Position numbers and translations under genes: made by a program. A stretch of DNA of 64,000 nt from Pelagibacterium luteolum (GTDB lineage Bacteria; Pseudomonadota; Alphaproteobacteria; Rhizobiales; Devosiaceae). Below the pieces are notes generated by a model, which was not told the DNA's origin, searched no databases, and saw only the letters and a list, made by a program, of their open reading frames with translations. Positions 22,874-39,819 of the stretch are shown in pieces. How positions within the stretch are numbered: position 1 is the first letter of the stretch; each line of letters opens with the position of its first letter. Location of the stretch: NCBI RefSeq assembly GCF_900100665.1, contig NZ_FNCS01000003.1, forward strand, positions 124,001 through 188,000, given 5' to 3'.

Positions 22874-25800
22874 TCAATGACGCCGATACCCAATTGGTTG
22901 CGATGTCCAGCGTCGGCGAAGTACGAAGATGTCGATCAAAAACACCCCCAGCGCAACAACCAACCAGGGCCAGGCCAACGAACGCAGCACCCAATGCCGG
23001 TCTATCGCCGGTAGAGCTGCATCGCGGGCGAGAACCACGCCGCCCGATGCCTGTGCCAGCAGCTCTGGCTCACGGGGATCTCCAAACTGATGCCGAAGAT
23101 GGGCTGGGTAGGCTTTAAACACCGTCACCTGTGATTCGATATCCCCACCGCGCGCCAAAAGTGTGGTCGGCCCGATGGGGGCCTGATCGATGCGACCGAA
23201 GTAACGTCCTGATCCAAATTCAACCATCTCGACCGGCACCCCCGTCTCGGCAACCGAGACTTCCAGCTTGTCGAGCGCCACCGCCTCGCCTTCGACACCC
23301 GTAATCTCCGACCAAATGTCAAAACCCTCTCCCTGCCGGTTCGCACGAATATCGATGCCCGGCCCGACAATGTCCGGGCCGATATCCCTCACGCTTTGCG
23401 ACCAGAGCCTTGCAAAACCATCCAGCGCGGACCATGGCCCTGCGACTTCCGATACGGGATTCATGGCAAATGCGGTGACCGAGCCAGCACCGTAGCGCCA
23501 GTTGGCGGCCAGCGGCTGGGTCTCACCCTCGGCGTCGACAAGGGTCAGCATGAGCTGCGCATCGGGCTTGGCGGTTGTCTTCACGTGACGATCGAGGAGC
23601 GGCAAATCCACGAGATTGAGCCCGAGGCGACGCCCGTCAACGGCGACCGCCACCTCGGTGGGCTCGTCGACCACCACGGGATCGTCCAGCGTCATGATAT
23701 CCTGCATCATGATGGCCGGAAGCGTCTGGAAATCCCGCGTTGCATAATAGACCCCGCCGCCATCCTCGGCGATCCGTTCAAGGCGGTCGGTCACAGCCGA
23801 ACTCCCGGCGGCGACAGTCGATATCGTGATCTCCGAAGCTCGCGCGCGGTCCAGCAGCACCGAAAAATCCAATGGCTCCACCAGACCGTCGGTGATGACG
23901 ACGATGTGGCTCAAGCTGGCATCGGCGGCTTCGAGAACACCAATCGCTTCACCAAGCGCTTCGAAAAGAGCCGTCCCGCCTCCAGGGATCACGTTCTCCA
24001 AAAGAGGCCCGATATCATCTTCGCCTCGCTCTTGAAGACTGACGATGGTCTGGGGCAGGTCATCAAAGCCGATGATGCCGATAAGGTCGTCAGGCTCCAT
24101 CAGATCGGCAGCGTTGGCCAGTGCGGCCTTGGCGATATCGAGGCGCGTTACGGGACCGACTGGCGCTTCCATGCTGCCTGAGCGGTCCATGACAAAAATG
24201 ATCGCGGTCTGCGGCCGGTCATGAGGCACGCGGCTCGAGAGCGGCGAAAGCGCCTCGAGAGGCGTACCATAATAGCCCCCTGCCCCGAACGCATTTTCAT
24301 CTCCTGCGATCATCAAGCCTTTGCCGAACGTCCCCACCGCGGTTTGCAGCTGCTCGAGTTGATCGAACCGCAGATCGCGTGCGCCGACATCGAGCAGAAC
24401 GATCTGATCATAGGCGAGCCACCCTTCCATCGCGCGCGGAGCAGCGTTCGGCGCAACGGTTTCGACCTCGAGCCCTTGATTGGCTACGATAGCCCTGAAT
24501 GCCCCCCCCTGATCGCCGTCTCTGGCCACAACCAGCGTCCGGGGCGACGGCCCGACCGTAACCAGTGTCGCCTCGATATTGTTGGCCGTAATATCGTCAT
24601 CGCTCGATTCCAGAACCATCTCGACAAGCTCGGCACCAACTGAGCCGGGCGTGAGCACGACGTCGGCCCGCGTAAGTCCGGCAACAAGCTCCAGCTGCCT
24701 CGAATCCACCGGGAGGCCGTTGCGGAGCGTGATCAGGCGCACCTCTCCGGGTCGGTCCGAATGAACGAGCCCGGTCACCCGAAACGTCTCGCCCATGGCA
24801 ACGCCGGCTGGAGCGTCAATCGACACCATCGATACGTCCGAGCCCGCGGACGGCGCTACAGGAAGAATGTCGATGATTGGACCAGCTTGAGCAAATAGAC
24901 GTTCTGCCAACGCCCCGTCATCTGTGACATCTCCCCCAAGAGCAACCCGCGGAGGTAAGGGCGCAAGCGCGAGCCCCAACTCGACCGCGCGCGCCCAGGA
25001 GAGTGGCAGAACACCTTCATTGTATGGAGCGTTTGCGGAAACTAGAACGCCGTCACGGTCGGCTCGCGGCGCCGCATTTGCCGCATCCACCACGATCACG
25101 CGCGTCGCCGTCGGCGCAAGGATGGGGACGGCAAGTGGTGGCAACGCAGCCCCCAGCGTCAGGATGGTCAAACCGCGCGCGGCAATCGTAAATCGGTGAC
25201 GGGACATGAGATCAAGCACGCCACGCCCCACCAATCGTCGGCCAGCGAGATAAATTGCGAGTTCAGCGACCAGAAGTGCGATGGCCAGCCCGATCAGCCA
25301 TACCCTGAGTTCGATCGAAGCATCTGGCCACCATTGCTCGATATCTTCACCGGGGTTCTCGCCTGGAAGAGATACAGCCGCGTTGACCGCGATCGGCGCG
25401 TCACCGGCCAAATAAAACCCAGCCTGGCGCGGGCGAAAAACGGCGTCCAAAACCGCGCCATTGCCTGAAAGACGCGAGCCGTCATAGACGATTTCGCCTG
25501 ACGGAGATGTAATCTGTGCCGTGCGCTGCTCGCGATCTAGAGGACAGGCCAAGCCGGAAATGCACGTGGTGGCTGACCCTATTTGCATCCACTCGACAAT
25601 ATTGGCCACCAAAAGCGGAAAGGCAGGGTCCTGAACCCAGCTTTCTCCGGCGAAACGCGCGCTAAGATAGACCTCCCTGCCTATGGCCGTGGTGCGGGTA
25701 GCCAGGAGCGGATTGCCTGCCACCTGCGCCACGATCACAAGCCCCGGTGGCAATCCGCCCTCGACATACGCCAGACTGGGAATTGACGCCCAATCTATGT

Positions 25801-27019
25801 CCCACGACAACGGATGATCAGCATTCCAGCCCGACAGCACATCATCGGCAATTTGCCCCGGCTGCTGATTGCGGTCGATCGCCGACGCGCCCAGATACAA
25901 TACGTTCGTATTCGGAGGCGTCTGCGGTCGCGGGCCGTCCAAAACAACGAGGTCGTAGGCGCTGGCGTCCTCTGGAAGGCTCTCGCTCTCTGAAATATCC
26001 ACTTCTGTTGCGGCGCGAAGAGCACGCGCAATCTCAGGCACCGGCTCTCCAACAACAAGAACCTGGGCGCGAGCGGTTTCAATGACGGCATGGTGTCGAT
26101 GCGAGGCGTTTTCGCTTCCCGGCGCTGCGTCGATTACCAGCCGTCCCTCACCTGGCAGATCGAGGCTCGCGGCAAAGCGTGCCGTTTGAATACCGTCGAT
26201 CGTTTCCGAACCAACCGGCGCCACCGCACCCCAATCAAGAAAGTCGGCGTCACCCGCGCGGGCGTAATAGAAAGATACAGAATCGGGCATGGTGTCTGCC
26301 GAGCGGGCACGCAGATGGCCCTGAACCCGCCAGCGCTGGGTCGATCGATCAAAGCTGAGATCGTCAACGCGCAGCCCAAGGCCCCGCTCATCGGCGGGGT
26401 ATGCGGTCGCGGAAACCGAAACGAGATCGCCCGGCTGGTAATGATCAAGCAAGCGCCAGCTTTCTGACGAGAGAATGTGAACACGCGTGCGCTCATCGTC
26501 TTCGACGATTGTATCCAACCAACGCGCAACGCCCGCCCAATCGGCGCGCTGATCGGTTGCGGACAGATCGGAGAGGTCACGCAAAGCCGTCATTGCATCG
26601 TCACGTCGAGCCGACACCAGACGCGCCCTGCCCTCCACACTGATGACTGAAAGCAGTCCCGTACCGGCGCCTTCGAGAACGGAGATGATCTCTCCGGCGT
26701 CGCTTTGCGCAATGCCATCTCCGACCGACATGGACCCCGAATTGTCGATCACCAGAACGGTATGGTCCGGAAAGTCGTCGGGTACGATCCGCAAATTGGC
26801 CGCCGCTAGGGTAATTGCTGCCAATGCCGCGAGCTGCAACAGCAAGGATGGCGTTAGGCGCGGCCATGCGATGTTTCGCGGTGCCGCTGATGTGGAGGTC
26901 AGCGTTCTCCAGATCGCAAGACTGGGCACCACCTGTCGACGCGGACGCTGGGCGTGCAAAAGCAAGATGGGAATGGCAGCCAAACCGAGCAGCAGCCAGA
27001 TCGGATTTAATAGGATCAT
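22874..27019 (-). CDS. Large membrane protein with two VWA domains (BatA-like fusion)
   Basis: The 1381-residue protein is probably a membrane-anchored periplasmic factor for maturation of the neighbouring quinoprotein. It starts like BatA/MxaC proteins, with two helices (about 1-22 and 55-76) and then a VWA domain with the metal motif DNSGS at 92-96. Helix pairs follow at about 572-593 and 612-635. A glutamine-amidotransferase-like segment (about 820-925) precedes a second VWA domain with DRSGS at 945-949 and a VITDG strand. A last helix lies near 1350-1370. I read it as a fusion of two VWA proteins that are normally separate (compare MxaC and MxaL). The ATG is three bases after the preceding stop. 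The function is inferred from neighbours. Confidence 0.8.
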   Translation of the reverse strand: MILLNPIWLLLGLAAIPILLLHAQRPRRQVVPSLAIWRTLTSTSAAPRNIAWPRLTPSLLLQLAALAAITLAAANLRIVPDDFPDHTVLVIDNSGSMSVGDGIAQSDAGEIISVLEGAGTGLLSVISVEGRARLVSARRDDAMTALRDLSDLSATDQRADWAGVARWLDTIVEDDERTRVHILSSESWRLLDHYQPGDLVSVSATAYPADERGLGLRVDDLSFDRSTQRWRVQGHLRARSADTMPDSVSFYYARAGDADFLDWGAVAPVGSETIDGIQTARFAASLDLPGEGRLVIDAAPGSENASHRHHAVIETARAQVLVVGEPVPEIARALRAATEVDISESESLPEDASAYDLVVLDGPRPQTPPNTNVLYLGASAIDRNQQPGQIADDVLSGWNADHPLSWDIDWASIPSLAYVEGGLPPGLVIVAQVAGNPLLATRTTAIGREVYLSARFAGESWVQDPAFPLLVANIVEWMQIGSATTCISGLACPLDREQRTAQITSPSGEIVYDGSRLSGNGAVLDAVFRPRQAGFYLAGDAPIAVNAAVSLPGENPGEDIEQWWPDASIELRVWLIGLAIALLVAELAIYLAGRRLVGRGVLDLMSRHRFTIAARGLTILTLGAALPPLAVPILAPTATRVIVVDAANAAPRADRDGVLVSANAPYNEGVLPLSWARAVELGLALAPLPPRVALGGDVTDDGALAERLFAQAGPIIDILPVAPSAGSDVSMVSIDAPAGVAMGETFRVTGLVHSDRPGEVRLITLRNGLPVDSRQLELVAGLTRADVVLTPGSVGAELVEMVLESSDDDITANNIEATLVTVGPSPRTLVVARDGDQGGAFRAIVANQGLEVETVAPNAAPRAMEGWLAYDQIVLLDVGARDLRFDQLEQLQTAVGTFGKGLMIAGDENAFGAGGYYGTPLEALSPLSSRVPHDRPQTAIIFVMDRSGSMEAPVGPVTRLDIAKAALANAADLMEPDDLIGIIGFDDLPQTIVSLQERGEDDIGPLLENVIPGGGTALFEALGEAIGVLEAADASLSHIVVITDGLVEPLDFSVLLDRARASEITISTVAAGSSAVTDRLERIAEDGGGVYYATRDFQTLPAIMMQDIMTLDDPVVVDEPTEVAVAVDGRRLGLNLVDLPLLDRHVKTTAKPDAQLMLTLVDAEGETQPLAANWRYGAGSVTAFAMNPVSEVAGPWSALDGFARLWSQSVRDIGPDIVGPGIDIRANRQGEGFDIWSEITGVEGEAVALDKLEVSVAETGVPVEMVEFGSGRYFGRIDQAPIGPTTLLARGGDIESQVTVFKAYPAHLRHQFGDPREPELLAQASGGVVLARDAALPAIDRHWVLRSLAWPWLVVALGVFLIDIFVLRRRWTSQPIGYRRH

Positions 27020-27022
27020 GCC

Positions 27023-28510
27023 CTATTCCTCGACCGGGCGGTCGAAATACTGAACGAGCACGTCGCGCCGACTGGCCGATATCGCGCCATGACGGCCGGG
27101 TTGCTCCGGCAATTTCCGCCATTGACCGCTGGCTGCGTCCAGACTGCCGCCGGGACCGAGCGTCGTCACGGTCTCGGGCGCCTGATTCTGCGCCATCGAC
27201 CGATCGCCCTCGGCGACGCGGTCAGTCGCGACGGTAAGAAACGTCCTGAGGGCATCGAGCGATTGCGATGCGTTGGGGCCAAGCAAATCCTCGGTACCTT
27301 GGCCAGCGAGAGCGCTGTCCCCGCGGCCCGACTGCGAAGCCGCACCAATCAACATGCCCTCACGCCCAGCGACATCGGCGTCGGAACGCGCGGTTGAGCC
27401 CAGAGCCTGCGCCGCATCACCAGTCGGGGTCGACCGGTCAGCACTGTAATTGGTGTCGGCGGGTCCCATGCAACTCTCTTCGCCGTCGATCTGACACGGC
27501 CCCTCGACCGGACCGGTCGGCAAATCATCCGGAACGATGTCGGACCGTTGTGCCCCAGGTGCTGTTGATGTCGCGATGCCACCCTCGGCCGGGATATCTG
27601 TCGCCGGCCCCTCCTCGGGTCCCTGAGGCGTCGGTGCTTGAGCGGTCGGTTCCGCGCCATTGGCCGCATCAATACCGGAGCGCAACGCGATGGCGCCCTG
27701 CTCGACTCGCTGCTGCAACTGCGCAAGCTGATCGATTAGTGTCCGCCCGGACTCGCCGCCTCGCGCCGCTTGCAGCGCCGGACCGGCATGCGAACCGATA
27801 GCATCCAGATCGTCAGCCAGTTGGCGCCGCGTGACCGAATGTTGGTTGGCACTTTCACGCGACATCTCAGCCAAGGATCGGGAAATGGCCATGAGGTACT
27901 GCTCACCCTGCGCCACACCCTCGTTTTCCAGCCTTATTGCAATGTCGTCGAGCGCCGCGACGATCGCTTGCAATTCCACTCCTTCGATCATTGTCGAAGG
28001 CGTTAGGGAAGCCGAAGACTGCGGCGCGATGAAAGCGCTGACCAGAACCGATGCGGACAGCAGAAGGGTCGCCACGATCAATGTCCGACTGACTCCCGGC
28101 ACAAGGTCAGCGGGAACGATCTGCCTTGCCAGTTGCTCAGCCTGCAGGATTAGTCGTTGAGCGAAAACGTTTTTGTCGCTCCGCCGCGTTTCCAGAACGG
28201 TTCTGAATATCTCTCGTCCGCTCAAGATGCGGTCGGCCGCTATCGCCAGGGCGCGATCGGACGGTTGGTGTAAAAACCCTCTGACCGCCATGCCGAAAAA
28301 TACCGCCGCGCTGGAGACGGCGATGATGGCCGCAGGCAAATCCATGCCAAAATACGCAGTCACCCGAAGCGTCAGAACAGCAGCCATCGCAGCGCACAAG
28401 GTCACAAGCAGCGTCAGGACGATTTCGCGGAGAATATAGTGGCGTCGGGCACTTTGCAGGCGCGACTGCAGCAAATCGAGTTCAGGGTGTGAATAAGCGA
28501 AATCGGTCAT
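27023..28510 (-). CDS. Membrane protein of unknown function in quinoprotein cluster
   Basis: The 495-residue protein has three helices near the N terminus (about 28-52, 56-80 and 143-163). A long helical, probably extracytoplasmic part (about 175-285) follows. The low-complexity stretch (about 285-440) is rich in Pro, Gly, Ala, Asp and Ser. It has no motif I can name; the overall shape recalls DUF4175-type partners of BatA-like proteins. It is directly upstream of the two-VWA gene, with a three-base spacer, and downstream of the MoxJ-like gene. It probably works with the VWA protein as one membrane assembly. Confidence 0.6.
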   Translation of the reverse strand: MTDFAYSHPELDLLQSRLQSARRHYILREIVLTLLVTLCAAMAAVLTLRVTAYFGMDLPAAIIAVSSAAVFFGMAVRGFLHQPSDRALAIAADRILSGREIFRTVLETRRSDKNVFAQRLILQAEQLARQIVPADLVPGVSRTLIVATLLLSASVLVSAFIAPQSSASLTPSTMIEGVELQAIVAALDDIAIRLENEGVAQGEQYLMAISRSLAEMSRESANQHSVTRRQLADDLDAIGSHAGPALQAARGGESGRTLIDQLAQLQQRVEQGAIALRSGIDAANGAEPTAQAPTPQGPEEGPATDIPAEGGIATSTAPGAQRSDIVPDDLPTGPVEGPCQIDGEESCMGPADTNYSADRSTPTGDAAQALGSTARSDADVAGREGMLIGAASQSGRGDSALAGQGTEDLLGPNASQSLDALRTFLTVATDRVAEGDRSMAQNQAPETVTTLGPGGSLDAASGQWRKLPEQPGRHGAISASRRDVLVQYFDRPVEE

Positions 28511-28541
28511 CAGCAGGATCTCGCTCCAGCATTAGGCGCCC

Positions 28542-29420
28542 TCAGAAACCGCCCACGCTGTAAGGCACGCTATCCAGTCCCGCCTCGACAATGAGACTTT
28601 CGATCGTGCCATCCTCAATCATTGAGGCAATCGCGTCATCCACGAGGGTGCGGAGATAGGTATTGCTCGTGAGCATGATACCACCGGTCTCAATTTCCGC
28701 GGCCGTATCGGGCGTTATGGAAAACTGCGTCAGATCGAGGTCTGGCTGTTCTGCCAACACGGTGGCCAGTGTAGGCCCATAGATGACCATGCCGCCGAGC
28801 GTACCATCGACCAATCGCGTCACCATGAGGTCGATGTCGCCATAGGGCAGGATTTGCCAGCGCTGGTCCTGCGGCAATGTCGCTGCATAGCGCATGGCGG
28901 TCGTGTAGCCAAAGGATGCCACCCGCGCGCCGAGTCGCTGATCGGAAGGGATATCGGCAAGCCGCTGCACCTGGGGATCGGTCGTGACCCCGACATAGCT
29001 GAATCCGGCATAAGGACGCGTCGGCGAAAATTCTTCAGGATAAAGGTTTGGCCCCAGGCCCATGCCGAGGATGATGTCGCAGTCGTTCACCAGGCTCACA
29101 TAGAGATCCTGTCCGGCAAACTCGCCGCCAATGCCATACCCGGCCCCAAGCTCGGTGTACTCGCTCTCGAGCAACAGCCGATCGGCAATGGCCTCGCCGA
29201 CACTACGATCGAATTCCGCAGTAGGGACACCGCTGAACTGGCACAGGCGGACTGTGCTGCCGGTATTGAGGCGCCACGTCTCGAGCATTGAACGATCGAT
29301 GCTCTCCGATACCTGCGCATTGGCCGAAGTCGAAATGAGCAGCGCGAGGCTCATCGCGATAAACGAGCCGGTAACGCGCGAAGCACTGACGCTGGAAATG
29401 ACCATGAGACGAATCAACAT
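28542..29420 (-). CDS. MoxJ-like periplasmic solute-binding protein
   Basis: This family-3 type periplasmic binding protein has about 292 residues and a signal peptide (ending near residue 36, SANAQ). Core motifs are VRLCQFSGVPTAEF at the N-lobe, CDIILGMGLGPN, and a second lobe with GARVASFGYTTAM. Proteins of this type accompany quinoprotein dehydrogenases (MoxJ/XoxJ, TIGR03870/71 families) and are thought to help dehydrogenase activation rather than transport. It sits just downstream of the PQQ dehydrogenase gene, separated by a strong hairpin, so read-through is partial or it has its own promoter. ATG 29420 and ATG 29405 are both possible starts. Confidence 0.72.
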   Translation of the reverse strand: MLIRLMVISSVSASRVTGSFIAMSLALLISTSANAQVSESIDRSMLETWRLNTGSTVRLCQFSGVPTAEFDRSVGEAIADRLLLESEYTELGAGYGIGGEFAGQDLYVSLVNDCDIILGMGLGPNLYPEEFSPTRPYAGFSYVGVTTDPQVQRLADIPSDQRLGARVASFGYTTAMRYAATLPQDQRWQILPYGDIDLMVTRLVDGTLGGMVIYGPTLATVLAEQPDLDLTQFSITPDTAAEIETGGIMLTSNTYLRTLVDDAIASMIEDGTIESLIVEAGLDSVPYSVGGF

Positions 29421-31691: not shown

Positions 31692-31878
31692 ACTCGTCTC
31701 CTCTTACGTCGTATGAAATTGCAGCGCCAACGGGCTGGATTAATCGGCTTTCGATTTGCAATCCTGCGCGCAGTACTGAATTTTATACTCTATTTTACGG
31801 TATGAATTGAGTACATTGCGCCCAATTCAATTTGGTTTAATTCGATTGCACAGATGATGCGGTACACCATTGCGCTAC

Positions 31879-31890
31879 ATCGCAAGCGAT
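31879..31890. promoter_or_regulatory. Possible operator in divergent spacer (ATCGC-AA-GCGAT)
   Basis: A 12-base perfect palindrome, framed by outer TGCG and CGCA, lies midway between the divergent dehydrogenase and MoxR-side operons. It may be a regulator site. No regulator gene is adjacent. Confidence 0.4.
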
Positions 31891-31929
31891 TGTACGCATT
31901 GCCTTGCGCACAGACAAGTAGCGAAACGC

Positions 31930-31948
31930 AATTCCGAATAGCGGAATT
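31930..31948. promoter_or_regulatory. Possible operator in divergent spacer (AATTCCG-N5-CGGAATT)
   Basis: Perfect seven-base arms with a five-base spacer lie about 40 bases before the start of the rightward operon. The symmetry and position suit a dimeric regulator controlling that operon, and possibly both. Confidence 0.5.
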
Positions 31949-31989
31949 AATCCTACTAATGATCTGGCGCGAGAGGAGGATTCCAAGCC

Positions 31990-32610
31990 GTGCCATGGAC
32001 CGTAGATTTATCGGCCCAACAGATTTTCTATCGCGTCTTCGCTGCCGTGATAGCAGTGGCGCTGCATGGATTTGTGACGGCTGGACTCGCGCGCCTTTTG
32101 GGGGATCGCGGTCCCCAATATGATGGCCGACTGACACTCAATCCGTTCCGGCACATCGACCCGATAGGAATGCTCTGTGCGGTTCTGGTCCTGTTTGGAT
32201 GGAGCCGTCCACCAAAGATCGATCCAGCGGAACTCAGATTCGGTCGCTTGGCGCTACCGATCATTGTTTTTGCGTCGATTCTGACACTTATCGCCTTTGC
32301 GGCAGGTCTCTGGGCGCTCCGACCGCTGGCGTTTTCACTTATGCCATCGAGTTCTGTCAGCTACGTCGCCGTCGGCCTGCTCGAAACCATCGCGCAGATG
32401 TCTGTCTATATGGCCGTGATCAACGTGCTTCCATTGCCACCGCTCGGTGCAGGATTTCTCGTTTTAGCGCTCGCGCCGGCCGCCTATCGTTGGATCGAAA
32501 AGCGGATGGTGTTTTTTTCGATCGCAGTCGGCGCATTGTGCCTGTTCTGGGCCCCCACGGCGCTTTCGGGCTTAGCACGCTCAATCCTCAGACTGGTCAC
32601 GGGCGGGTAG
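31990..32610 (+). CDS. S2P (M50)-like membrane protein without catalytic residues
   Basis: The 206-residue protein with about five membrane helices has the site-2 protease framework: GRLTLNPFRHIDPIG at 46-60, GWSRPPKID at 70-78, and NVLPLPPLGAG at 145-155. The zinc motif HExxH is HGFVT here (26-30), losing the Glu and second His. The usual Asp of PPLDG is Gly. I read it as an inactive family member, possibly a binding or scaffold protein. The start is GTG at 31990, with AGGAGG ten bases upstream. It is the first gene of the rightward operon, 12 bases before the MoxR gene, and this position implies a role in the quinoprotein system. Confidence 0.72.
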   Translation: MPWTVDLSAQQIFYRVFAAVIAVALHGFVTAGLARLLGDRGPQYDGRLTLNPFRHIDPIGMLCAVLVLFGWSRPPKIDPAELRFGRLALPIIVFASILTLIAFAAGLWALRPLAFSLMPSSSVSYVAVGLLETIAQMSVYMAVINVLPLPPLGAGFLVLALAPAAYRWIEKRMVFFSIAVGALCLFWAPTALSGLARSILRLVTGG

Positions 32611-32622: not shown

Positions 32623-33624
32623 ATGAATTCAGCTTCAGTCGATCCCGGCGCCCAACTCGACCGCCTTCGTGCCGTCGTCGGCGACATCCGCGCATCGCTG
32701 CGCGATACGGTGATCGGTCAACACGAGACGACCGATCTGATGCTCATCGCTTTATTGGCAGGCGGTCACGTTCTGCTTGAGGGCCCTCCAGGTGTCGGGA
32801 AGACCCTTATGGTTCGCGCCCTCGCCACCGCCACCGGCCTCGATTTCGCACGCGTTCAGTTCACCCCTGATCTTATGCCAGCTGACATTACCGGCACATC
32901 CGTGCTCACCCCCGATGACGAGGGACGCACGCATCTCGAATTCCGAAAAGGTCCGGTATTTTCCCAACTCCTTCTCGCCGACGAAATCAACCGTGCAACA
33001 CCTCGCACCCAGTCGGCACTGCTTGAGGCGATGCAGGAAGGCACCGTGTCCGCTGCAGGCACCACGCGCCGCCTGCCACGACCATTTTTCGTCCTTGCGA
33101 CCCAGAACCCAATCGAGATGGACGGAACCTACGTTCTTCCCGAAGCCCAGATCGATCGTTTCCTGTTCCGGATCGATGTCGGCTATCCCGACGAGGCCGT
33201 TCTCACGCGCATTCTCGAAACCACTACCGGCGAGACCCAGCCGCAGCCCGAGCCCGTAGCCCGTGACCGGGACGTCATCGACATGCAGCATCTGGTGCGG
33301 CGGATGCCCATCGCCCCGTCGCTGCACCAGGCCATCGCGAAGTTTTGTATCGCCACGCAACCGCACGGCCCGCATTCCGATGATAAGGTAAACCGCTACG
33401 TCCGGTTCGGTGTCAGTCCACGCGGCGCGCAAGCGCTCGTGGTCGCTGCAAAAGCCCGCGCCTTCGCCCATGGCCGCAATCACGTGTCGATCGACGACCT
33501 GCGTCATGTCCTTTTGCCCGTGACGCGCCACCGGGTTCAGGCCAATTTCGAGGGACGCGCCGCCGGCATCGACATCGAAAGTTTGATCATGAACCTCTTT
33601 GATCGCACGATGGAACACGCCTGA
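32623..33624 (+). CDS. MoxR-family AAA+ ATPase
   Basis: This cytosolic AAA+ chaperone-like ATPase has 333 residues. It carries Walker A EGPPGVGKT, the MoxR signature HLEFRKGPVF, Walker B LLLADEINRA, sensor 1 LATQNPIEMDGTYVLPEAQ, and sensor 2 SPRGAQAL. MoxR ATPases work with DUF58 and VWA proteins to mature or insert metal into partner enzymes. The classic case is MxaR with MxaS, C and L for methanol dehydrogenase. Its stop overlaps the DUF58 start by one base (TGATG). Placement opposite the two-VWA gene across a shared promoter region fits this role. Confidence 0.93.
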   Translation: MNSASVDPGAQLDRLRAVVGDIRASLRDTVIGQHETTDLMLIALLAGGHVLLEGPPGVGKTLMVRALATATGLDFARVQFTPDLMPADITGTSVLTPDDEGRTHLEFRKGPVFSQLLLADEINRATPRTQSALLEAMQEGTVSAAGTTRRLPRPFFVLATQNPIEMDGTYVLPEAQIDRFLFRIDVGYPDEAVLTRILETTTGETQPQPEPVARDRDVIDMQHLVRRMPIAPSLHQAIAKFCIATQPHGPHSDDKVNRYVRFGVSPRGAQALVVAAKARAFAHGRNHVSIDDLRHVLLPVTRHRVQANFEGRAAGIDIESLIMNLFDRTMEHA

Positions 33625-34499
33625 TGCGACCGCCCGCCGCCCTGCTTGATCAACTGGGCCGAACCCGCCTCATGCCTGCGACGATGGCAGGAAGCGCATC
33701 GATCGGCGAGCGCCGGTCCAGGCGCAAGGGCCAGGGTCTGGAGTTTATCGACCACCGCCCGTATCGCGAAGGCGACGATACACGTCATCTCGATCCCCAC
33801 CTTTATGCGCGCACGGGCGAATACTATTTGCGGGAGTTCGCGCGCGATCAGCAATTGCCCGTTGTCGTCCTTCTCGACACCAGTCCCTCGATGGGCGCTG
33901 CCGGCACCGCAAAACTCCACCTTTCGCAGCAGCTTGCGCAGATTTTAGGGTTTATCGCGCTAGCCGGTGGCGACAGTGTGCGGATTGCCACCATCGACCG
34001 CCAAGGCCTTGCCGTCTCCGATCGCTGGCAGGGCGTCGCGCGCAGCGAAAACCTGTTCGCTTGGATATCGGAACGCTCAGCCAGTGTCGGCACTCCGCTC
34101 GCAGCGAGTGCGGAAAGGCTCGTGAAGTCACTCACTGAACACGCGCTCATCATCACGCTCAGTGACTGGTGGGATGAGGATTTACCGGCAGCGATCGCCG
34201 TTCTTGCGCAAGCCGGCCATACCGTCCTGGGCATCCAGATATTATCCGCGACTGAGCAGGATCCCGCCAAACTTGGCGACGGGCTGATGACAATCGTCGA
34301 CAGCGAAAGCGGAGAGGAGCGCGCTATCGTCATTGACGAGCATATCGTTGAGCAATACCGCGAGGCGCTTGAAACGCACCGCAATCATCTGCTGACCGCG
34401 TTTCGTTCGCGCGGCTGGTCGTTTGTGTCATTGACCGACGAGGACGATTTGGCGGACATCTGCCTGACGAAATTCCGGAGCTTGGGAGTGGTGTCATGA
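33624..34499 (+). CDS. DUF58 protein with VWA-like fold (MxaS type)
   Basis: The 291-residue protein has the DUF58 signature GQGLEFIDHRPYREGDDTRH (about 38-57), followed by a VWA-like half with VVVLLDTSPSMG (metal motif DTSPS) near 85-97. No membrane helix is evident, so it is probably cytosolic or membrane-associated. DUF58 proteins are the direct partners of MoxR ATPases. It overlaps both neighbours (TGATG at its start, ATGA with the next ABC gene), so tight co-translation is expected. Confidence 0.88.
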   Translation: MRPPAALLDQLGRTRLMPATMAGSASIGERRSRRKGQGLEFIDHRPYREGDDTRHLDPHLYARTGEYYLREFARDQQLPVVVLLDTSPSMGAAGTAKLHLSQQLAQILGFIALAGGDSVRIATIDRQGLAVSDRWQGVARSENLFAWISERSASVGTPLAASAERLVKSLTEHALIITLSDWWDEDLPAAIAVLAQAGHTVLGIQILSATEQDPAKLGDGLMTIVDSESGEERAIVIDEHIVEQYREALETHRNHLLTAFRSRGWSFVSLTDEDDLADICLTKFRSLGVVS

Positions 34500-35470
34500 G
34501 CAGCGTAGAGACCTACCCCGAAGGCTTGGCGATAACCGTCGAGGGCGTTTCCAAGCGCTTCGGACGCACCCTCGCGCTCGACGATGTCAGTCTCGCCGTG
34601 CCCCACGGCACCGTTTTCGCGCTATTGGGCCCGAACGGTGCCGGAAAATCGACACTCATCGACATCCTCTGCACGATCGGCCGTCCTGATAGCGGCCGAG
34701 CGCTCATCGCCGGGATCGACGTGGTCAAACAGCCCCTCGCGGCGCGCCGACAGCTCGGCGTCGTCTTTCAGGAAACCACGCTCGATACGCGCCTTACGGT
34801 GCGCGAGAACCTCTCCTTCCACGGCATGGTCTACCAGATGGGCCGCAGGGAACGGCTGACCCGTACGGACGAAATGCTCGAACTGGTGGATCTGACCGAC
34901 TGGGCGGACTCAGAGGTCAAAACCCTGTCGTCAGGCATGCGTCGCCGCCTCGAAATTGCGCGCGCCCTCATGCACCGGCCGCAAATCCTGTTCCTTGATG
35001 AGCCGACGGTCGGGCTGGACGCTCAGGCACGCGCCCGCATCTGGGACTATATCGCAGCCCTCCGCGCGCAACAGGACCTGACCGTAATCGTCACCACTCA
35101 CTATATCGAAGAGGTCGATGCCTGCGACGACATCTGCATCATCGACCGCGGCAAGATCCTCGCAAAGGGCAGCCCGGACGCGCTGAAATCGCAGCATGGA
35201 TCGACTTTGCTTAAGGTGACCCCAAGGTCGGACGAAGCTCGCGCCGCAATTCTCGCGCGCTACCCGGATGCGGTAGCGGGCGCCGAGAGCCAACTGCTTA
35301 TCCAGATGACGGCGACCGATAGCGCCGATGCAATTCTTGCAGAATTCGGCAATCAGTTGCGCCAGATTTCCATAGACCAGCCAAGCTTGGAGAGCGTTTT
35401 TCTCTCGCTCACCGGCCGCGATCTCCGCGAAGCCCCGCCGGTATCCAGGAAGGCGAGGCGCAATGGCTAG
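34496..35470 (+). CDS. ABC transporter ATP-binding protein (DrrA/ABC-2 type)
   Basis: The 324-residue ATPase has Walker A GPNGAGKST, Q-loop VFQETTLD, signature LSSGMRRRLEIARAL and Walker B ILFLDEPTVGLD. A C-terminal extension of about 90 residues is typical of DrrA-like export ATPases. The matching ABC-2 permease is the gene at 38171, four genes further on. Such pairs (PedA/PedC type) are found with PQQ alcohol dehydrogenases, with unknown cargo. It overlaps the DUF58 gene by four bases and the next permease gene by eight. Confidence 0.88.
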   Translation: MSSVETYPEGLAITVEGVSKRFGRTLALDDVSLAVPHGTVFALLGPNGAGKSTLIDILCTIGRPDSGRALIAGIDVVKQPLAARRQLGVVFQETTLDTRLTVRENLSFHGMVYQMGRRERLTRTDEMLELVDLTDWADSEVKTLSSGMRRRLEIARALMHRPQILFLDEPTVGLDAQARARIWDYIAALRAQQDLTVIVTTHYIEEVDACDDICIIDRGKILAKGSPDALKSQHGSTLLKVTPRSDEARAAILARYPDAVAGAESQLLIQMTATDSADAILAEFGNQLRQISIDQPSLESVFLSLTGRDLREAPPVSRKARRNG

Positions 35471-36239
35471 CGCGTCCCGCACCAACCAGGAATACTCAGC
35501 GCTCACCATAGCTGCGACGCGCATCGGATTTCTGATCCTGTTGCTGGCGCTGTGGTGGCTGGCGTCGATCAACGTCGCCCGCAATATCATCCCCTCGCCC
35601 TTGGCAACTTACCATGCGGCGGGACGACTGTTTTCCGAGGGGCGGCTGCAGCAAGGTCTGCTGGACAGCGTCACTGTCTATCTCAGCGGCTATGGCATCG
35701 CGATCCTCATCGCCATCCCGCTTGGCGTTGCCATGGGCGCGTTCAATCTGTTCGGCCGCACGCTCGAGATCTATGTCTATGCCCTGTCCGCGACGCCGCG
35801 GGTTGCCTTCATTCCGCTGATCATCGTCCTGCTCGGTCTGGGCATCGAGGCCAAGGTGTTCATCGTCATGCTAGGCGCCGTAATGCCGATCCTAATCAAC
35901 ACCTATGCCGGGGTCCGGCAGGCCGATCCCGAACTCATCGAAATGGCGCGCTCGGTCGGTGCCGGGCGCCTGCGCATTTTCTCGCGCATCGTCATTCCCG
36001 GTGCGATACCCTACGTCATCGTCGGACTGCGCCTGGGCGCAACGATCGGACTGATCAACACCGTCGTGGCCGAACTTTACACGGCCGTGTCCGGGCTCGG
36101 CGGTCTTCTGGCGATCTATGGCAACACCTTTCGCATGGCCGAATACTTCGTCATCGTCCTTTGCCTTGCGGCGATCGGTGTTGTCGTCACTGAGAGCCTT
36201 CGCATTATCGAAAACCGCCTCGGCCGTTGGCGCGACTGA
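35463..36239 (+). CDS. ABC transporter permease, NitT/TauT (SsuC) type
   Basis: The 258-residue protein has about six helices and the binding-protein-dependent permease motif EMARSVGAGRLRIFSRIVIPGA (about 160-181, the EAA loop). It would form the channel for the adjacent binding protein (36268) and ATPase (37296). This family imports sulfonates, nitrate, taurine, thiamine precursors and similar small molecules; the substrate here is unknown. The start overlaps the preceding ATPase gene by eight bases. Confidence 0.88.
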   Translation: MASASRTNQEYSALTIAATRIGFLILLLALWWLASINVARNIIPSPLATYHAAGRLFSEGRLQQGLLDSVTVYLSGYGIAILIAIPLGVAMGAFNLFGRTLEIYVYALSATPRVAFIPLIIVLLGLGIEAKVFIVMLGAVMPILINTYAGVRQADPELIEMARSVGAGRLRIFSRIVIPGAIPYVIVGLRLGATIGLINTVVAELYTAVSGLGGLLAIYGNTFRMAEYFVIVLCLAAIGVVVTESLRIIENRLGRWRD

Positions 36240-36267
36240 CGCCAAGGCGCAAACTCTGGAGAGAAAA

Positions 36268-37299
36268 ATGATCATCAAACGCGTTCTCACACTGCTCGCT
36301 GCAGGCACGGCGATCGTTGCCTTCTCCGGCACGGCAAACGCCCAGTCCGATGAACCCTTCCGCCTCATCGTAACGCATCTCGAAGTGCCGCTCGTTCCCA
36401 ACTCCGTCATGGATCTTGCCGTCGAGCTCGGCTATTTCGAACGCGAAGGGGTCGATGTCGAACTCGTGCGGGTACAGCAGACACCCTCTGCACTGGCCGC
36501 CCTTCAATCGGGCGAGGGCGACATGGCCAACGTGGGCATTGACGCCCTGCTTCAGGTCATCAATTCCGGTGCGACCGATTTCCGCGCCGTCACCTCACCA
36601 AACAAATCGCTGCCCTTCCTGATCGCATCGCGTGAAGAGATCGCGACGCCGCAGGATCTCGTCGGCGCAAGTTTTGGCGTGGGCCGCGTCGGCAGCCTCG
36701 ATCATTCGCTCTCCACGCTCGTCCTGGCCAGCATGGATGTCGATATCGAGGATACCGAACTGGTCAATCTCGGCCAGCCGAACGTGCGCGCTCAGGCCCT
36801 TGCCGCCGGTCAGATCGATGCAACCACCATGTCGATCGGCACTTGGGCCGAGCTGCCCGACACGACGGGCCTTCATGTCCTTATCGATCAGGACGCCTAC
36901 TATGAGGCGGCGCCCGTCGTAAACAAGGTCAATGCCGTACCCGGAAATGTGCTCGAGGATCGGCCGGAGGATGTTGAAGCGGTGATCCGCGCGCTGGTCA
37001 AGATCAGCCGCGATTTCGCAGCCGATCCGCAGCTCTGGGTCGATGCGATGTCGGACGCCCTGCCCCAGACCGACGTCGCAGTCCTGGAAATGCTGGCCGA
37101 TGCCTTCGCCGAGAGTTGGAGCGTCAATGGCGGCATGAGCGCCGCCGAACTGAGCTACACTTCGGACTGGCTGTATGCCACACCCGACTTTTCCGAAATC
37201 GCGCCGCTGGAATTGCAGGACTGGGTGGATTTCGGTCCCCTCGATGCCGTCCTCGCCGAACTGGGCACCGAAGACGCGATGGATCCTGCGGATAGATGA
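36268..37299 (+). CDS. ABC transporter substrate-binding protein, NMT1/SsuA type
   Basis: The 343-residue periplasmic protein has a signal peptide (about 1-26, ending ANAQ) and the NMT1/SsuA-like fold: ELGYFEREGVDVELVRV, ALQSGEGDMANVGIDALLQ, LVGASFGVGRVGSLDHS. The ligand is not predictable; a short organic or sulfonated compound is usual. The ATG at 36268 follows GGAGAGAAAA, and a longer frame inside the permease gene is rejected. It overlaps the next ATPase gene by four bases. Its presence inside a quinoprotein cluster suggests import of a cofactor, metal chelate or substrate. Confidence 0.87.
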   Translation: MIIKRVLTLLAAGTAIVAFSGTANAQSDEPFRLIVTHLEVPLVPNSVMDLAVELGYFEREGVDVELVRVQQTPSALAALQSGEGDMANVGIDALLQVINSGATDFRAVTSPNKSLPFLIASREEIATPQDLVGASFGVGRVGSLDHSLSTLVLASMDVDIEDTELVNLGQPNVRAQALAAGQIDATTMSIGTWAELPDTTGLHVLIDQDAYYEAAPVVNKVNAVPGNVLEDRPEDVEAVIRALVKISRDFAADPQLWVDAMSDALPQTDVAVLEMLADAFAESWSVNGGMSAAELSYTSDWLYATPDFSEIAPLELQDWVDFGPLDAVLAELGTEDAMDPADR

Positions 37300-38159
37300 C
37301 ACCTCTCGCCGCCGGAACGCCGATCGAACATGCTGGAACCGCGAATACCGCGGCTCGAGCACCGCAACTTGTGTTCGATCACGTCAATAAGGCGTTCGGA
37401 CGGTCCGATGGGTCCTCGGCGCTGGCATTGGCCGATGTGTCCTTGTCGATCGATGACCACAAGTTTGTTGCGGTCATCGGGCCTTCCGGCTGCGGCAAGA
37501 CCACCCTGCTCCGGATTGCCAACGGCCTGATCGCGCCGGACTCGGGGACCGTCTCCGTCAAGGGGCGGCCCCCGGTACCCGGCCCGGATACTGGATTCGT
37601 CTTCCAGGGGTTCCGATTGATCCCGTGGGCAACGGTGCTTGGGAATGTGGAATTCGCTCTCGAAACGCTGGACCTGTCCGCGTCCGAACGCCGCGACCGC
37701 GCGAATACATATCTCGAACTCGTTGGCCTCACCCGCTGGGCCACGAGCTACCCCGGCCAGCTCTCGGGCGGGATGAAACAACGCGTTGCATTGGCTCGCG
37801 CATTGGCCGGCGAGCCACAGATGTTGCTCATGGACGAACCGTTCGCGAGTCTCGACGCCCAAACGCGCGAACTTATGCAGATCGAACTGCTTCACATCTG
37901 GAACCGCCGCAAGCCCACTGTTCTGTTTGTCACCCACAGCGTCGATGAAGCGCTACTGCTCGCGGACACAGTAGTCCTGATGTCGACCGGCCGTATTCTC
38001 GAAGTGATCGATGTGCCCCTCGCCCGTCCCCGCCAGCTCGATGCTGCCCGGTCGGACCAGGACTTCATAACCCTCCGCAATCATCTGTGGAACCGGATCA
38101 GGGACCTCGTGCTCACCGATCCCGCGTCGGCCTTTTTCGGCCGCGAGCTGAACCAATAG
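37296..38159 (+). CDS. ABC transporter ATP-binding protein, NitT/TauT type
   Basis: The 287-residue ATPase has Walker A GPSGCGKTT, Q-loop VFQGFRLIPW, signature LSGGMKQRVALARAL, Walker B MLLMDEPFASLD and switch His in FVTHSVDEA. This is the standard SsuB/TauB layout and completes the importer with genes 35463 and 36268. An N-terminal extension of about 25 residues precedes the ABC fold. ATGA overlap with the binding protein gene gives coupled translation. Confidence 0.9.
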   Translation: MTPLAAGTPIEHAGTANTAARAPQLVFDHVNKAFGRSDGSSALALADVSLSIDDHKFVAVIGPSGCGKTTLLRIANGLIAPDSGTVSVKGRPPVPGPDTGFVFQGFRLIPWATVLGNVEFALETLDLSASERRDRANTYLELVGLTRWATSYPGQLSGGMKQRVALARALAGEPQMLLMDEPFASLDAQTRELMQIELLHIWNRRKPTVLFVTHSVDEALLLADTVVLMSTGRILEVIDVPLARPRQLDAARSDQDFITLRNHLWNRIRDLVLTDPASAFFGRELNQ

Positions 38160-38170
38160 GAGATCCGGGC

Positions 38171-38995
38171 ATGTCGACAGCCTTGTCACGAGGATTTGGG
38201 CAGGCGCGCGGCGTTTATGCCATCTGGCTGCGCGAGGTGAAACGCTCGCTTCGGGACAAGGGGCAATTGGTAGGTGGGGTCAGCCGCCCACTCCTTTGGG
38301 TCCTTATCCTCGGCATAGGCCTCAATCCATATTTCCGCGGCGAGGTCTATGGCGAGGTCCGGTTTGTCGTTCCCTACACCTATCTGCAGTTCATTTTCCC
38401 AGCCGTCATCGTCCTCAACATTCTCTACACCTCGATCCAATCCGCGGTATCTCTGATCTGGGATCGCGAATTCGGCTTTCTGCGCGAAGTTTTGGTCTCG
38501 CCCATGCCGCGCAATTTGATCTTGCTCGGGAAAGTTTTGGGTGGCGCCACCACAGCGGTCATTCATGGATGCATGGTGCTGGTCGTCGCGCGCTTCGTAG
38601 GCGTTGCGCCATCGTGGAGCGACATCGCTCAAGCGATCGGCCTCATGTTTGTTCTCTCTTTTGGCCTCACAGCCTTCGGGATCGTCATCGCGAACTACAT
38701 TCGGGGCTTTGAGAGCTTCGGCGTCTTTTCCAATGCTGTGATCCTGCCCCTCTATTTCACCGCAAGTTCGGTCTTCCCCCTAGACCCCGCACTCACCCGC
38801 GCCCAGACGCTTGTCACCTACCCCGAGTGGCTCGTCTATATGGTCGAGTTCAATCCCCTCACCTACGCCATCGATGCGATGCGCGGCATCCTGATCGACT
38901 TCAACCAGTTCGATCCGGCCTTCAACTTCCAGGTTGTGGGCGTCTTGGCTGTGGGGCTTTTCCTGTTGGCGATGTGGGAGTTCAGGAAAGTCTGA
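38171..38995 (+). CDS. ABC-2 type permease (PedC-like)
   Basis: The 274-residue protein has six predicted helices and the ABC-2 signature (IWDREFGFLREVLVSPMPR, about 97-115) plus FNPLTYAIDAMRGIL near the C terminus. Its likely ATPase is the DrrA-type gene at 34496. Alcohol-dehydrogenase-linked exporters of this type are known from ped-type clusters, where the cargo is not known. The start at 38171 has AGGAG eight bases upstream. Its stop overlaps the next start (TGATG). Confidence 0.87.
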   Translation: MSTALSRGFGQARGVYAIWLREVKRSLRDKGQLVGGVSRPLLWVLILGIGLNPYFRGEVYGEVRFVVPYTYLQFIFPAVIVLNILYTSIQSAVSLIWDREFGFLREVLVSPMPRNLILLGKVLGGATTAVIHGCMVLVVARFVGVAPSWSDIAQAIGLMFVLSFGLTAFGIVIANYIRGFESFGVFSNAVILPLYFTASSVFPLDPALTRAQTLVTYPEWLVYMVEFNPLTYAIDAMRGILIDFNQFDPAFNFQVVGVLAVGLFLLAMWEFRKV

Positions 38996-39819
38996 TGGTC
39001 GAGCGTCCGTCGCGGTTCAGATCGGTTCTCAACGATTTCGGTCCCCTGGCCGTCGTCTTTGCGCTGCTGTTCGCGGTGAGCTTCCTGCCGCCCGACACCT
39101 CCCGAGCCGAGATCGATACCCGAGGACGCTTGAGCGTCTGCATGCCGACATCCTATCCCCCGCTCGTTACAGGCGACGCGGACGTTCCCGGATTCGAGGT
39201 CGAACTGCTCCAGGCCATTGCCGACCGTCTGGGCTGGCGCCTCAACGTCGTCAGCAACTCGCTCATGGGCCGCGACTACAACCCGCGCAGCTGGCGGATT
39301 AACCGCGCGCAATGCCAATTGCTGGCCGGCGGTGTGGCGCTGAGCGCGCAGACGCGCTCATTCCTCGACACGTCCGCCCCGCATCTGCGAACCGGCTGGG
39401 CGGTCGTTTCCCCGCTTGGCGACACCGCAGGCATCGCGGACCGAACCGTTGGCGTATATGTCGGACTCACGGGCCTGGATCGGATCGCGCTGTCGCAATA
39501 TCTCCGGTCCCAGCAGGTAAGCACGGCCATTCTGCGCGATCCGGCCGCCATGGCGCGGGCCCTTGAGGACGGTGAGGTCGATGTCGTTGTGACCGAGGCT
39601 TTGCTGGCCACGCAGACCTTCGATCCCGACGCATACGAGATCGCTCTACTGCCGGCACCTCTGGAACAAATCCCGCTCGGCTATGGCTTCTGGAAGGGCG
39701 ACATGACCCTGCGCCGCGCCGTGGAATCGACCCTCCACGACCTCACAGACGAAGGCGTCGTCGCCAGTTTGGCCGAGCGCTACGAGATAGACCCGGATCT
39801 ACTCACGCTCGGACACTAA
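38995..39819 (+). CDS. Second MoxJ-like periplasmic binding protein
   Basis: The 274-residue protein has a signal-anchor-like N terminus (about 14-38) and a family-3 binding-protein fold, with LSVCMPTSYPPLVTG, GFEVELLQAIADRLGW and a C-lobe GYGFWKGDMTLRRAVEST. It belongs with quinoprotein-dehydrogenase-associated binding proteins. XoxJ of this group binds partly folded XoxF. The cluster thus has two such proteins, one per operon. The start ATG overlaps the preceding stop (TGATG), with AGGAAAG upstream. It is the last gene of the rightward operon and ends five bases before the convergent sulfurtransferase gene. Confidence 0.78.
   Translation: MVERPSRFRSVLNDFGPLAVVFALLFAVSFLPPDTSRAEIDTRGRLSVCMPTSYPPLVTGDADVPGFEVELLQAIADRLGWRLNVVSNSLMGRDYNPRSWRINRAQCQLLAGGVALSAQTRSFLDTSAPHLRTGWAVVSPLGDTAGIADRTVGVYVGLTGLDRIALSQYLRSQQVSTAILRDPAAMARALEDGEVDVVVTEALLATQTFDPDAYEIALLPAPLEQIPLGYGFWKGDMTLRRAVESTLHDLTDEGVVASLAERYEIDPDLLTLGH

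What the first reader, a model, noticed from the sequence alone, without database searches (positions are those of the whole stretch)
22874..39819. Divergent quinoprotein supercluster with its own chaperone and two transporters
Two operons meet at one spacer. Together they encode a PQQ dehydrogenase, two MoxJ-like binding proteins, a two-VWA membrane protein, a MoxR ATPase, DUF58, an inactive S2P-like protein, a DrrA/ABC-2 exporter and a NitT/TauT importer. MoxR, DUF58 and VWA genes are the mxaR, S, C, L maturation module of methanol dehydrogenase, and ABC exporters and MoxJ occur in ped/xox clusters. The combination, the gene fusion and the split across a shared promoter are unusual. I propose a self-contained system that imports a cofactor or substrate, matures the enzyme and exports a product or chelator. 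This is the best candidate for an undescribed system in the window.
Basis: partly seen in the sequence, partly recalled or inferred. Interest (0 to 1): 0.82.

Follow-up and report, generated by a model that had tools for sequence, protein, structure and literature searches.

The report
Alcohol-oxidising enzyme with cofactor-supply gene cluster
A bacterium keeps the gene for an alcohol- or sugar-oxidising enzyme together with genes that probably capture its vitamin-like cofactor PQQ and put the finished enzyme together, and related gene sets occur in distantly related bacteria, in an enzyme group that includes oxidisers of a grain toxin.

Summary
Window 22874-39819 holds two divergent operons: a PQQ dehydrogenase fused to an N-terminal cytochrome c, a MoxJ-family binding protein, a 495-aa membrane protein, a 1381-aa double-VWA protein; and an inactive S2P homologue, MoxR, DUF58, a DrrAB exporter, a NitT/TauT-class importer and an anchored binding protein. 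The set recurs, modular, in Alphaproteobacteria and Deinococcota. Its core (dehydrogenase, MoxJ-like protein, DrrAB, second binding protein, pseudo-S2P) carries two optional modules. MoxR-DUF58-VWA-p495 clusters on the dehydrogenase tree: 3 changes against 20 in shuffles; it is laid out like the mxa maturation genes but is distant from them. The importer moves more freely; in other lineages the same slot holds homologues of PqqT, the crystallised PQQ-binding protein (E 3e-66 and 2e-29), so the window importer most likely handles PQQ. The enzyme belongs with alcohol/sorbose/DON dehydrogenases, not methanol dehydrogenases. The shared spacer is not a constant feature, and the exporter's cargo remains unknown. 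I found no description of the set in the searched library. A new variant of a known kind.

The parts
29490..31691 (-). PQQ-dependent dehydrogenase (733 aa) with N-terminal cytochrome c domain joined by an Ala/Pro/Glu-rich linker
   Evidence: PF01011 1.7e-68, PF13442 5.6e-7; TIGR03075 408.6 bits, under its cut-off 480; nearest PDB 9m2c, 4cvb, 7wmd, 4mh1; the only one of 56 with CxxCH
28542..29420 (-). MoxJ/XoxJ-family periplasmic binding protein, partner of the dehydrogenase
   Evidence: family profile finds MxaJ 9ism 3.9e-11 and XoxJ 6onp 1.5e-9; TIGR03871 matched by 18 of 22 members, far below its cut-off; same-strand neighbour of the dehydrogenase in 40 of 42 loci that hold both; model pLDDT 85 with amino-acid binding-protein fold
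27023..28510 (-). p495: membrane protein with hydrophobic N-terminal segments and a long low-complexity region, member of the maturation module
   Evidence: no Pfam family over cut-off; same-strand neighbour of VWA in 11 of 12 loci that hold both; hydrophobic segments
22874..27019 (-). 1381-aa BatA-type membrane protein with two VWA domains (MIDAS-like DNSGS at residue 92 and DRSGS at residue 945)
   Evidence: PF13519 and PF00092 on residues 940-1104; PF07584 BatA 25.5 bits, just under its cut-off 25.9; family alignment; motifs and hydrophobic segments; the first VWA rests on the motif and alignment, no Pfam hit
31692..31989 (.). spacer between the two operons (298 bp); no convincing promoter match
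   Evidence: one sigma-70-like match against 0.8 expected
31990..32610 (+). pseudo-S2P: M50/site-2-protease-like membrane protein without the HExxH motif
   Evidence: PF02163 weakly in 19 of 22 members (window 0.03, under cut-off); profile finds S2P proteases at 0.001-0.1; 0 of 53 with HExxH
32623..33624 (+). MoxR AAA+ ATPase (Walker A GPPGVGKT)
   Evidence: PF07726 1e-59; Walker A
33624..34499 (+). DUF58 protein
   Evidence: PF01882 4.3e-27; beside MoxR in 16 of 16 loci that hold both
34496..35470 (+). DrrA-type ABC ATPase of the exporter
   Evidence: TIGR01188 308.4 bits (cut-off 312), TIGR03864 247.9 (cut-off 302)
35463..36239 (+). NitT/TauT-class importer permease
   Evidence: PF00528 7.3e-23
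36268..37299 (+). NMT1/SsuA-type substrate-binding protein of the importer (the frame opens at 36118; start taken at the signal peptide)
   Evidence: PF09084 8.8e-17; model hits include PqqT 9b1u/9b1v/9ooz among thiamin-, taurine- and sulfonate-binding proteins
37296..38159 (+). NitT/TauT-class importer ATPase
   Evidence: PF00005 5.3e-29; NF040729 and TIGR01184, both under cut-off
38171..38995 (+). DrrB-type ABC-2 permease of the exporter
   Evidence: PF01061 4.6e-24; TIGR01247 153 bits and TIGR03861 (PedC) 116.8 bits, both under cut-off
38995..39819 (+). membrane-anchored SBP_bac_3 binding protein, gene next to DrrB
   Evidence: PF00497 2.2e-9; beside DrrB in 54 of 54 loci that hold both

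Best explanation
The locus is a portable quinoprotein assembly and cofactor-supply cluster. The periplasmic dehydrogenase (an alcohol/polyol/sugar oxidase of the DepA, sorbose-dehydrogenase, ADH-IIG group) passes electrons to its own fused cytochrome c. The MoxJ-type protein holds or loads the apo-enzyme. For this and some related enzyme lineages a membrane machine of MoxR ATPase, DUF58, double-VWA protein and p495 does an extra maturation step, most likely setting the metal ion and PQQ. The NitT/TauT-class importer captures PQQ. The DrrAB exporter with its anchored binding protein and the pseudo-S2P belong to the common core; my best guess is that they hand PQQ or metal back to the periplasmic side. 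Shown: gene content, recurrence, linkage, clustering of the module on the enzyme tree, and PqqT homologues in the importer slot of other lineages. Inferred: every biochemical step, above all the importer's substrate in the window and the exporter's cargo.
For: Recurrence in Devosia, Pelagibacterium, Rhodobacteraceae, Beijerinckiaceae, Bauldia, Acetobacteraceae and Deinococcota; all six core genes in 33 of 60 loci. In Meiothermus hypogaeus a PqqT-like importer, DrrAB, binding protein, cytochrome c, two dehydrogenases, MoxJ-like, p495, MoxR, DUF58 and VWA lie on one strand. The module label needs 3 changes on a 60-row dehydrogenase tree against 20.3 in shuffles, and 3 v 19.5 on the MoxJ-like tree. 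In genomes sampled without regard to PQQ enzymes, 9 of 11 strong VWA homologues (over 100 bits) have a PQQ propeller in the stretch read around them. Module and non-module dehydrogenases occur in one genome (2 and 3 examined in the window genome). Importer slot: A5 type in 22 and PqqT type in 6 of 60 loci, never both; PqqT match 3e-66 for L077 and 2.3e-29 for the Meiothermus protein. PqqT binds PQQ with Kd 50 nM and aids its capture (PMC12124388, passage). pqqC was not found in 37 of 48 cluster-bearing genomes, some of them incomplete.
Against: The window importer's binding protein is only a distant relative of PqqT (hhalign 97%, 19% identity; in the PDB profile search 3qsl, 3e4r and two TAXI proteins score above PqqT). 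Importer presence does not correlate with lack of pqqC (Fisher p 0.50), and the window genome has pqqC. Four importer homologues of 409-440 bits from the class sample have no PQQ enzyme in the stretch read, one has a cytochrome c. Recombinant KvADHs, reported 55-58% like DepA, work in vitro with added PQQ and Ca2+ (PMC10301637, passages), so maturation genes are not strictly needed for activity in this enzyme group. 2 of 11 sampled VWA homologues, and 8 of 22 VWA loci found through DrrB (five of them under 14 kb), show no PQQ enzyme. The module-labelled enzymes are not one clade: L062 and L065 group with module-free enzymes. The module label also clusters on the S2P and DrrB trees (2 v 14.3, 6 v 21.1), so it may follow the whole cluster rather than the enzyme.
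Confidence: 0.58

Rival explanations
1. Substrate import and product export: the NitT/TauT importer brings in a substrate or unrelated nutrient (sulfonate, thiamin precursor, carboxylate) and DrrAB pumps out a toxic oxidation product, with MoxR/VWA maturing the enzyme as in mxa. This is.
For: Model neighbours include thiamin-, taurine- and sulfonate-binding proteins, several above PqqT; DrrA/DrrB families named for drug export score best.
Against: A quinoprotein works in the periplasm and needs no substrate import (general knowledge); in seven related loci the importer slot holds a PqqT-like protein (two of the seven, L077 and L093, were compared with PqqT directly, the rest by alignment with them).
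Confidence: 0.22
2. Lanthanide system like PedA1A2BC: the transporters move rare-earth ions or a chelate, and the enzyme with its Asp two places after the catalytic Asp is lanthanide-dependent.
For: Catalytic stretch RDNWDLDS with +2 Asp; PedA1A2BC is described as essential for PedH-dependent growth (PMC12997753, passages).
Against: The usual metal-ligand Glu is absent in the rows of this group that I displayed, so a +2 Asp/Glu may simply replace it; solved relatives such as 4mh1 and 22vi have Glu at +2 and KvADHs were assayed with Ca2+; by eye no PedA1- or PedA2-like protein is among the 22 recurrent families listed; DrrA/B are below the TIGR03864/TIGR03861 cut-offs.
Confidence: 0.1
3. The MoxR/DUF58/VWA trio is a general envelope-stress module that sits beside the enzyme by hitchhiking; only the core genes belong to the quinoprotein.
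For: Such trios are widespread in bacteria (recalled); 37 of 60 related loci show neither VWA nor MoxR.
Against: 9 of 11 sampled strong VWA homologues have a PQQ propeller in the stretch read; the module label clusters on the dehydrogenase tree; same kind of layout in mxa operons.
Confidence: 0.1

Closest known systems
mxaFJGIRSACKLD methanol dehydrogenase operon
   Same: PQQ dehydrogenase, MoxJ protein, cytochrome c, MoxR, DUF58 and VWA genes in one run; the cluster's profiles find J (24-34 bits) and MoxR (155-178) in 6 of 6 mxa regions, DUF58 (40-63) in 4 of 6, VWA weakly (11-23) in 6 of 6
   Different: Enzyme of another group; window MoxR is 32-35% identical to the six MxaR but 47-70% to the cluster MoxR proteins; one 1381-aa double-VWA protein where mxa has two short ones; no MxaI found; extra exporter, importer and pseudo-S2P
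ped cluster with PedA1A2BC (Pseudomonas putida)
   Same: PQQ alcohol dehydrogenase with an ABC transporter, a MoxJ-like protein (PedG) and a cytochrome c (PMC12997753, passages)
   Different: DrrA/B fall below the Ped family cut-offs; PedA1 and the PedA2 propeller not seen; MoxR/DUF58/VWA, pseudo-S2P and a NitT/TauT importer are added
PqqT (Methylorubrum extorquens)
   Same: NMT1-superfamily binding protein of a PQQ system; close homologues in the same slot of related clusters
   Different: The window protein is a distant relative (19% in the profile alignment)
DepA / ADH-IIG / sorbose dehydrogenase group
   Same: Best PDB matches of the window enzyme; the module-linked Devosia enzyme L072 matches ADH-IIG 22vi with 1178 bits
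   Different: The window enzyme has a fused N-terminal cytochrome c and Asp at +2 where five Devosia module-linked enzymes (L068, L069, L071, L072, L102) have Glu

Membership tests
PQQ alcohol dehydrogenase (eight-bladed quinoprotein) | PF01011 propeller with catalytic Asp and Asn | tested here: met
   (RDNWD and TNST present)
PQQ alcohol dehydrogenase (eight-bladed quinoprotein) | usual metal-ligand Glu (in GGEFG of the standard type) | tested here: not met
   replaced in the 18 rows of this group displayed; crystallised 4cvb and 7wmd align the same way, so the feature does not define this group
Lanthanide-dependent quinoprotein (XoxF/PedH type) | Glu, Asn, Asp plus an extra Asp at +2 | tested here: not met
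   +2 Asp present but Glu missing
MoxJ/XoxJ binding proteins | family profile match and place beside the dehydrogenase | tested here: inconclusive
   profile E 3.9e-11 to MxaJ and 40 of 42 adjacent, but the TIGR03871 cut-off is not reached by the window protein (18 of 212 bits) and the fold search ranks other binding proteins first
mxaRSACKL maturation module | MoxR, DUF58 and VWA genes linked to a quinoprotein | tested here: met
mxaRSACKL maturation module | same subfamilies as MxaR and MxaC/MxaL | tested here: not met
   MoxR 32-35% to MxaR against 47-70% within the cluster family; VWA 11-23 bits, no p495 match (profiles were built from the cluster family)
mxaRSACKL maturation module | needed for metal insertion into the enzyme | not testable with these tools
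   needs deletion and metal analysis
PedA1A2BC transporter | TIGR03864/TIGR03861 cut-offs and PedA1/PedA2 genes | tested here: not met
   PedA1/PedA2 judged by eye
PqqT-type PQQ importer | sequence of the PqqT family | tested here: not met
   window protein distant; met by L077 and L093 of the same slot
PqqT-type PQQ importer | PQQ binding | not testable with these tools
   needs a binding assay
Active site-2 protease (M50) | HExxH zinc motif | tested here: not met
   0 of 53 labelled homologues; window reads VALHGF

The most novel reading that the evidence does not exclude
A horizontally mobile PQQ shuttle and assembly line: a dedicated importer takes PQQ in so that it is not lost through the outer membrane, the DrrAB exporter with its anchored binding protein hands it back to a MoxJ-type loader, and a MoxR/DUF58/double-VWA/p495 machine, supplied only for certain dehydrogenase lineages, inserts cofactor and metal. 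Two distantly related importer families have taken the same slot.
Probability: 0.25. Interest if true: 0.78.

Novelty: new variant of a known kind. Interest (0 to 1): 0.62.

Why it matters
How PQQ enzymes receive cofactor and metal in the periplasm is poorly understood, and what MoxR/DUF58/VWA genes do there is an old open question (recalled). This cluster offers natural with-and-without comparisons inside single genomes and an enzyme group that includes oxidisers of the grain toxin deoxynivalenol (PMC10301637, passages) and sorbose dehydrogenase. If the importer binds PQQ, it helps explain how carriers without pqqC (37 of 48 genomes, some incomplete) run PQQ enzymes, and it gives engineers missing parts for whole-cell use of these enzymes.

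Tried and rejected
Lanthanide reading of the +2 Asp: set aside. Correlation of the importer with lack of pqqC: none (Fisher p 0.50); VWA against pqqC also none (p 0.30). Search of L080's dehydrogenase against the PDB at 1e-100 gave nothing. Foldseek of the MoxJ-like model ranks general amino-acid binding proteins, not MxaJ, in the 50 rows listed, so the MoxJ link rests on sequence profiles. Pfam gave no name for p495. Promoter scan of the spacer is at chance level. Paper searches aimed at the set listed the ped review, mxa/MoxR papers and unrelated ones, none that I recognise as describing it; I saw listings only for most. The library lacks most subscription papers, so absence there is weak evidence. 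The endonuclease/phosphatase gene 22117-22893 overlaps the VWA gene end but gave only 2 related frames in the loci and I left it out. Exporter cargo and pseudo-S2P function could not be tested; the pseudo-S2P lies on the same strand beside a cytochrome c gene in 27 of 39 loci that hold both.

Limits of the counts. The 60/12 split of the 72 loci is mine (54% identity or more, plus L110). Profiles used for labels were built from the close loci, so they favour these; of the 12 distant loci 10 are archaeal and several are short. The VWA searches scored at most two candidates per genome. Trees are quick searches with SH-aLRT only; labels depend on about 10 kb either side, and loci cut by contig ends may be mislabelled. 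Of 71 frames labelled PQQ, 59 (plus the window's) entered the tree and 12 were left out: duplicate loci L081, L141, L147 (two), L148 (two), short frames L040_1, L131, L140_19057, and three module-linked enzymes scoring under 400 bits, L132, L133, L142; one of the L147 frames (L147_14922) was not a copy of a kept row as far as I know. The same duplicate loci were dropped. My DrrB query carried one, and the second binding protein query two, extra codons at the start. The match of loci to genomes covers 59 of 60 loci (L107 missing), 48 genomes; for twelve loci I read it from shared record prefixes or contig lengths.
Full report
Observation. A named relative of the same genus is Pelagibacterium lacus: G242 is 'same genus' and its contig length 205991 is that of L062. 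Two divergent operons cover 22874-39819. GC in 1-kb steps is 0.545-0.648, lowest around the spacer.

The enzyme. The 733-aa protein joins a cytochrome c (CATCH at residue 59) to a PQQ propeller. Its nearest solved structures are 9m2c, 4cvb, 7wmd and 4mh1. 7WMD is DepA, the deoxynivalenol dehydrogenase, according to a passage of PMC10301637. The catalytic Asp and Asn are present; the usual Glu ligand of the metal is absent in the 18 rows of the group displayed, and an acid two places after the catalytic Asp may take its role. Only the window enzyme among 56 carries the heme motif.

Recurrence. The order-wide search with the VWA protein covered 297 genomes. Beyond the own genome it gave strong homologues (over 100 bits) at six places in five genomes (G182 twice, G202, G242, G158, G154); the class-wide profile search of 385 genomes added five places in four genomes. 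Of these 11, nine have a PQQ propeller in the stretch read around them (L040, L043, L044, L045, L062, L132, L133, L135, L136; in L132 and L133 a distant one of about 300 bits) and two do not (L041 with its flanks L137 and L138, and L134). The window genome has a second copy on C12 on one strand: cytochrome c, dehydrogenase, MoxJ-like, S2P, p495, VWA, MoxR, DUF58, DrrA, DrrB, binding protein, without the importer. A DrrB scan of named genomes gave 72 loci, which I split into 60 close and 12 distant relatives. Close: PQQ 43, MoxJ-like 46, S2P 44, second binding protein 54, cytochrome c 42, VWA 22, MoxR 17, DUF58 16, importer binding protein 22, p495 13. Distant: 0 of 12 for each of these; 10 of the 12 are archaeal, so this control is weak. 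Thirty-three of 60 have all six core genes and five (L065, L068, L069, L071, L072) have core, VWA, MoxR, DUF58 and importer together. Several loci come from one genome, so loci are not independent. Annotated plasmids show the set too: Paracoccus aminophilus pAMI5 has dehydrogenase, cytochrome c, binding proteins, exporter and importer without MoxR/VWA in the 26 kb read; Deinococcus aetherius pDAETH-2 has dehydrogenase, exporter and binding proteins and, about 7 kb on, importer, MoxR and VWA; Ketogulonicigenium robustum has VWA, an AAA ATPase and DUF58 together.

Modules. On a tree of 60 dehydrogenases the label 'VWA or MoxR in the locus' needs 3 changes against 20.3 in 500 shuffles; the importer label needs 9. 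Most module-linked enzymes form one group of 23; L062 and L065 group with module-free enzymes, and L080, L135 and L136 lie apart. The one module-labelled enzyme inside the large module-free group (L040_1247) shares its locus with a module-type enzyme. On other trees the module label needs 3 (MoxJ-like, shuffled 19.5), 2 (S2P, 14.3) and 6 (DrrB, 21.1) changes. The module therefore goes closely with the enzyme and its MoxJ-like partner, though I cannot exclude that it follows the whole cluster. Module and non-module clusters coexist in one genome, so taxonomy alone does not explain the split: the window genome has two enzymes with module (window, C12) and three without (C31, C24, C37), each of the five paired with a MoxJ-like gene; the VWA profile finds only those two copies in it.

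Maturation module. Six mxa regions fetched through TIGR03870 show the same kinds of genes (dehydrogenase, J, cytochrome, MoxR, DUF58 in four of six by profile, VWA). The window MoxR is 32-35% identical to the six MxaR and 47-70% to the 38 cluster MoxR frames, so this is a separate branch. That mxaRSACKL is needed for calcium insertion is recalled; a MoxR-type ATPase, CoxD, is reported in CO dehydrogenase metal-cluster synthesis (PMC3471820, title and start of abstract in a search listing). Against a strict need: recombinant KvADHs are active with PQQ and CaCl2 added (PMC10301637, passages).

Binding proteins. The 292-aa family finds MxaJ and XoxJ by profile, and TIGR03871 is its most frequent family (18 of 22). 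The ped review says such proteins may bind partly folded apo-enzyme and aid PQQ and metal insertion (PMC12997753, passages). The second binding protein follows DrrB in all 54 loci that hold both.

Importer. The window binding protein (A5 family) is found in 22 of 60 loci, either between DrrA and DrrB or apart. Its model resembles thiamin-, taurine- and sulfonate-binding proteins and PqqT. In L077, L079, L093, L099, L105, L106 and the Deinococcus plasmid L155 the slot holds another binding protein; the L077 protein matches PqqT at 3e-66 (next unrelated PDB match 3e-9) and the Meiothermus protein L093 at 2.3e-29 (next 9e-4). No close locus has both importers. PqqT binds PQQ with Kd 50 nM and helps its capture (PMC12124388, passage). 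The window family itself is only distantly related to PqqT, and its presence does not follow lack of pqqC. I therefore hold PQQ import as the most likely, not as shown.

Mosaic. The left operon's enzyme is closest to Bauldia (L144 72%, L040 70%) and Roseitranquillus (L091 62%), the MoxJ-like protein to the same three (39-43%), while MoxR, DrrA, permease and DrrB are closest to Pelagibacterium sp. L049 (70, 72, 84, 90%). The VWA protein has no such near relative (best 45% over part). The window cluster looks like a recombined pair of operons, which weakens any meaning of its shared spacer; head-to-head layouts of cytochrome c and DrrA recur in L055, L081, L091 and L094.

Verdict. A real, recurring gene set with known parts, not described in the papers I could find; a new variant of the quinoprotein cluster kind. 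Function is inferred from linkage and homology only.

Noticed in passing
L093 (Meiothermus hypogaeus) 1173-15601 and L148: Importer, exporter, binding proteins, two dehydrogenases and the whole maturation module lie on one strand in a different phylum; no pseudo-S2P was labelled there.
   Followed up: yes
G714 (Bauldia MAG, L094), L139-L144: The VWA profile matches at seven places in this genome, two of which lie next to each other and look like one gene in two frames; PQQ frames are labelled in five of the six stretches read.
   Followed up: partly
window genome contigs C31, C24, C37 (L046-L048): Three further PQQ dehydrogenases each beside a MoxJ-like gene without the module; a further PQQ_2 match on C40 was not examined.
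   Followed up: partly
L156 (Ketogulonicigenium robustum plasmid) 7846-14523: VWA, AAA ATPase and DUF58 genes on a plasmid, with a PQQ-dependent sugar dehydrogenase gene about 5 kb away.
   Followed up: no
pseudo-S2P beside cytochrome c genes, 27 of 39 loci that hold both: The inactive S2P homologue pairs with the cytochrome c gene, which suggests a role in electron transfer or cytochrome handling.
   Followed up: no
window 40713-40788: tRNA-Met gene just outside the cluster end, a possible integration site.
   Followed up: no
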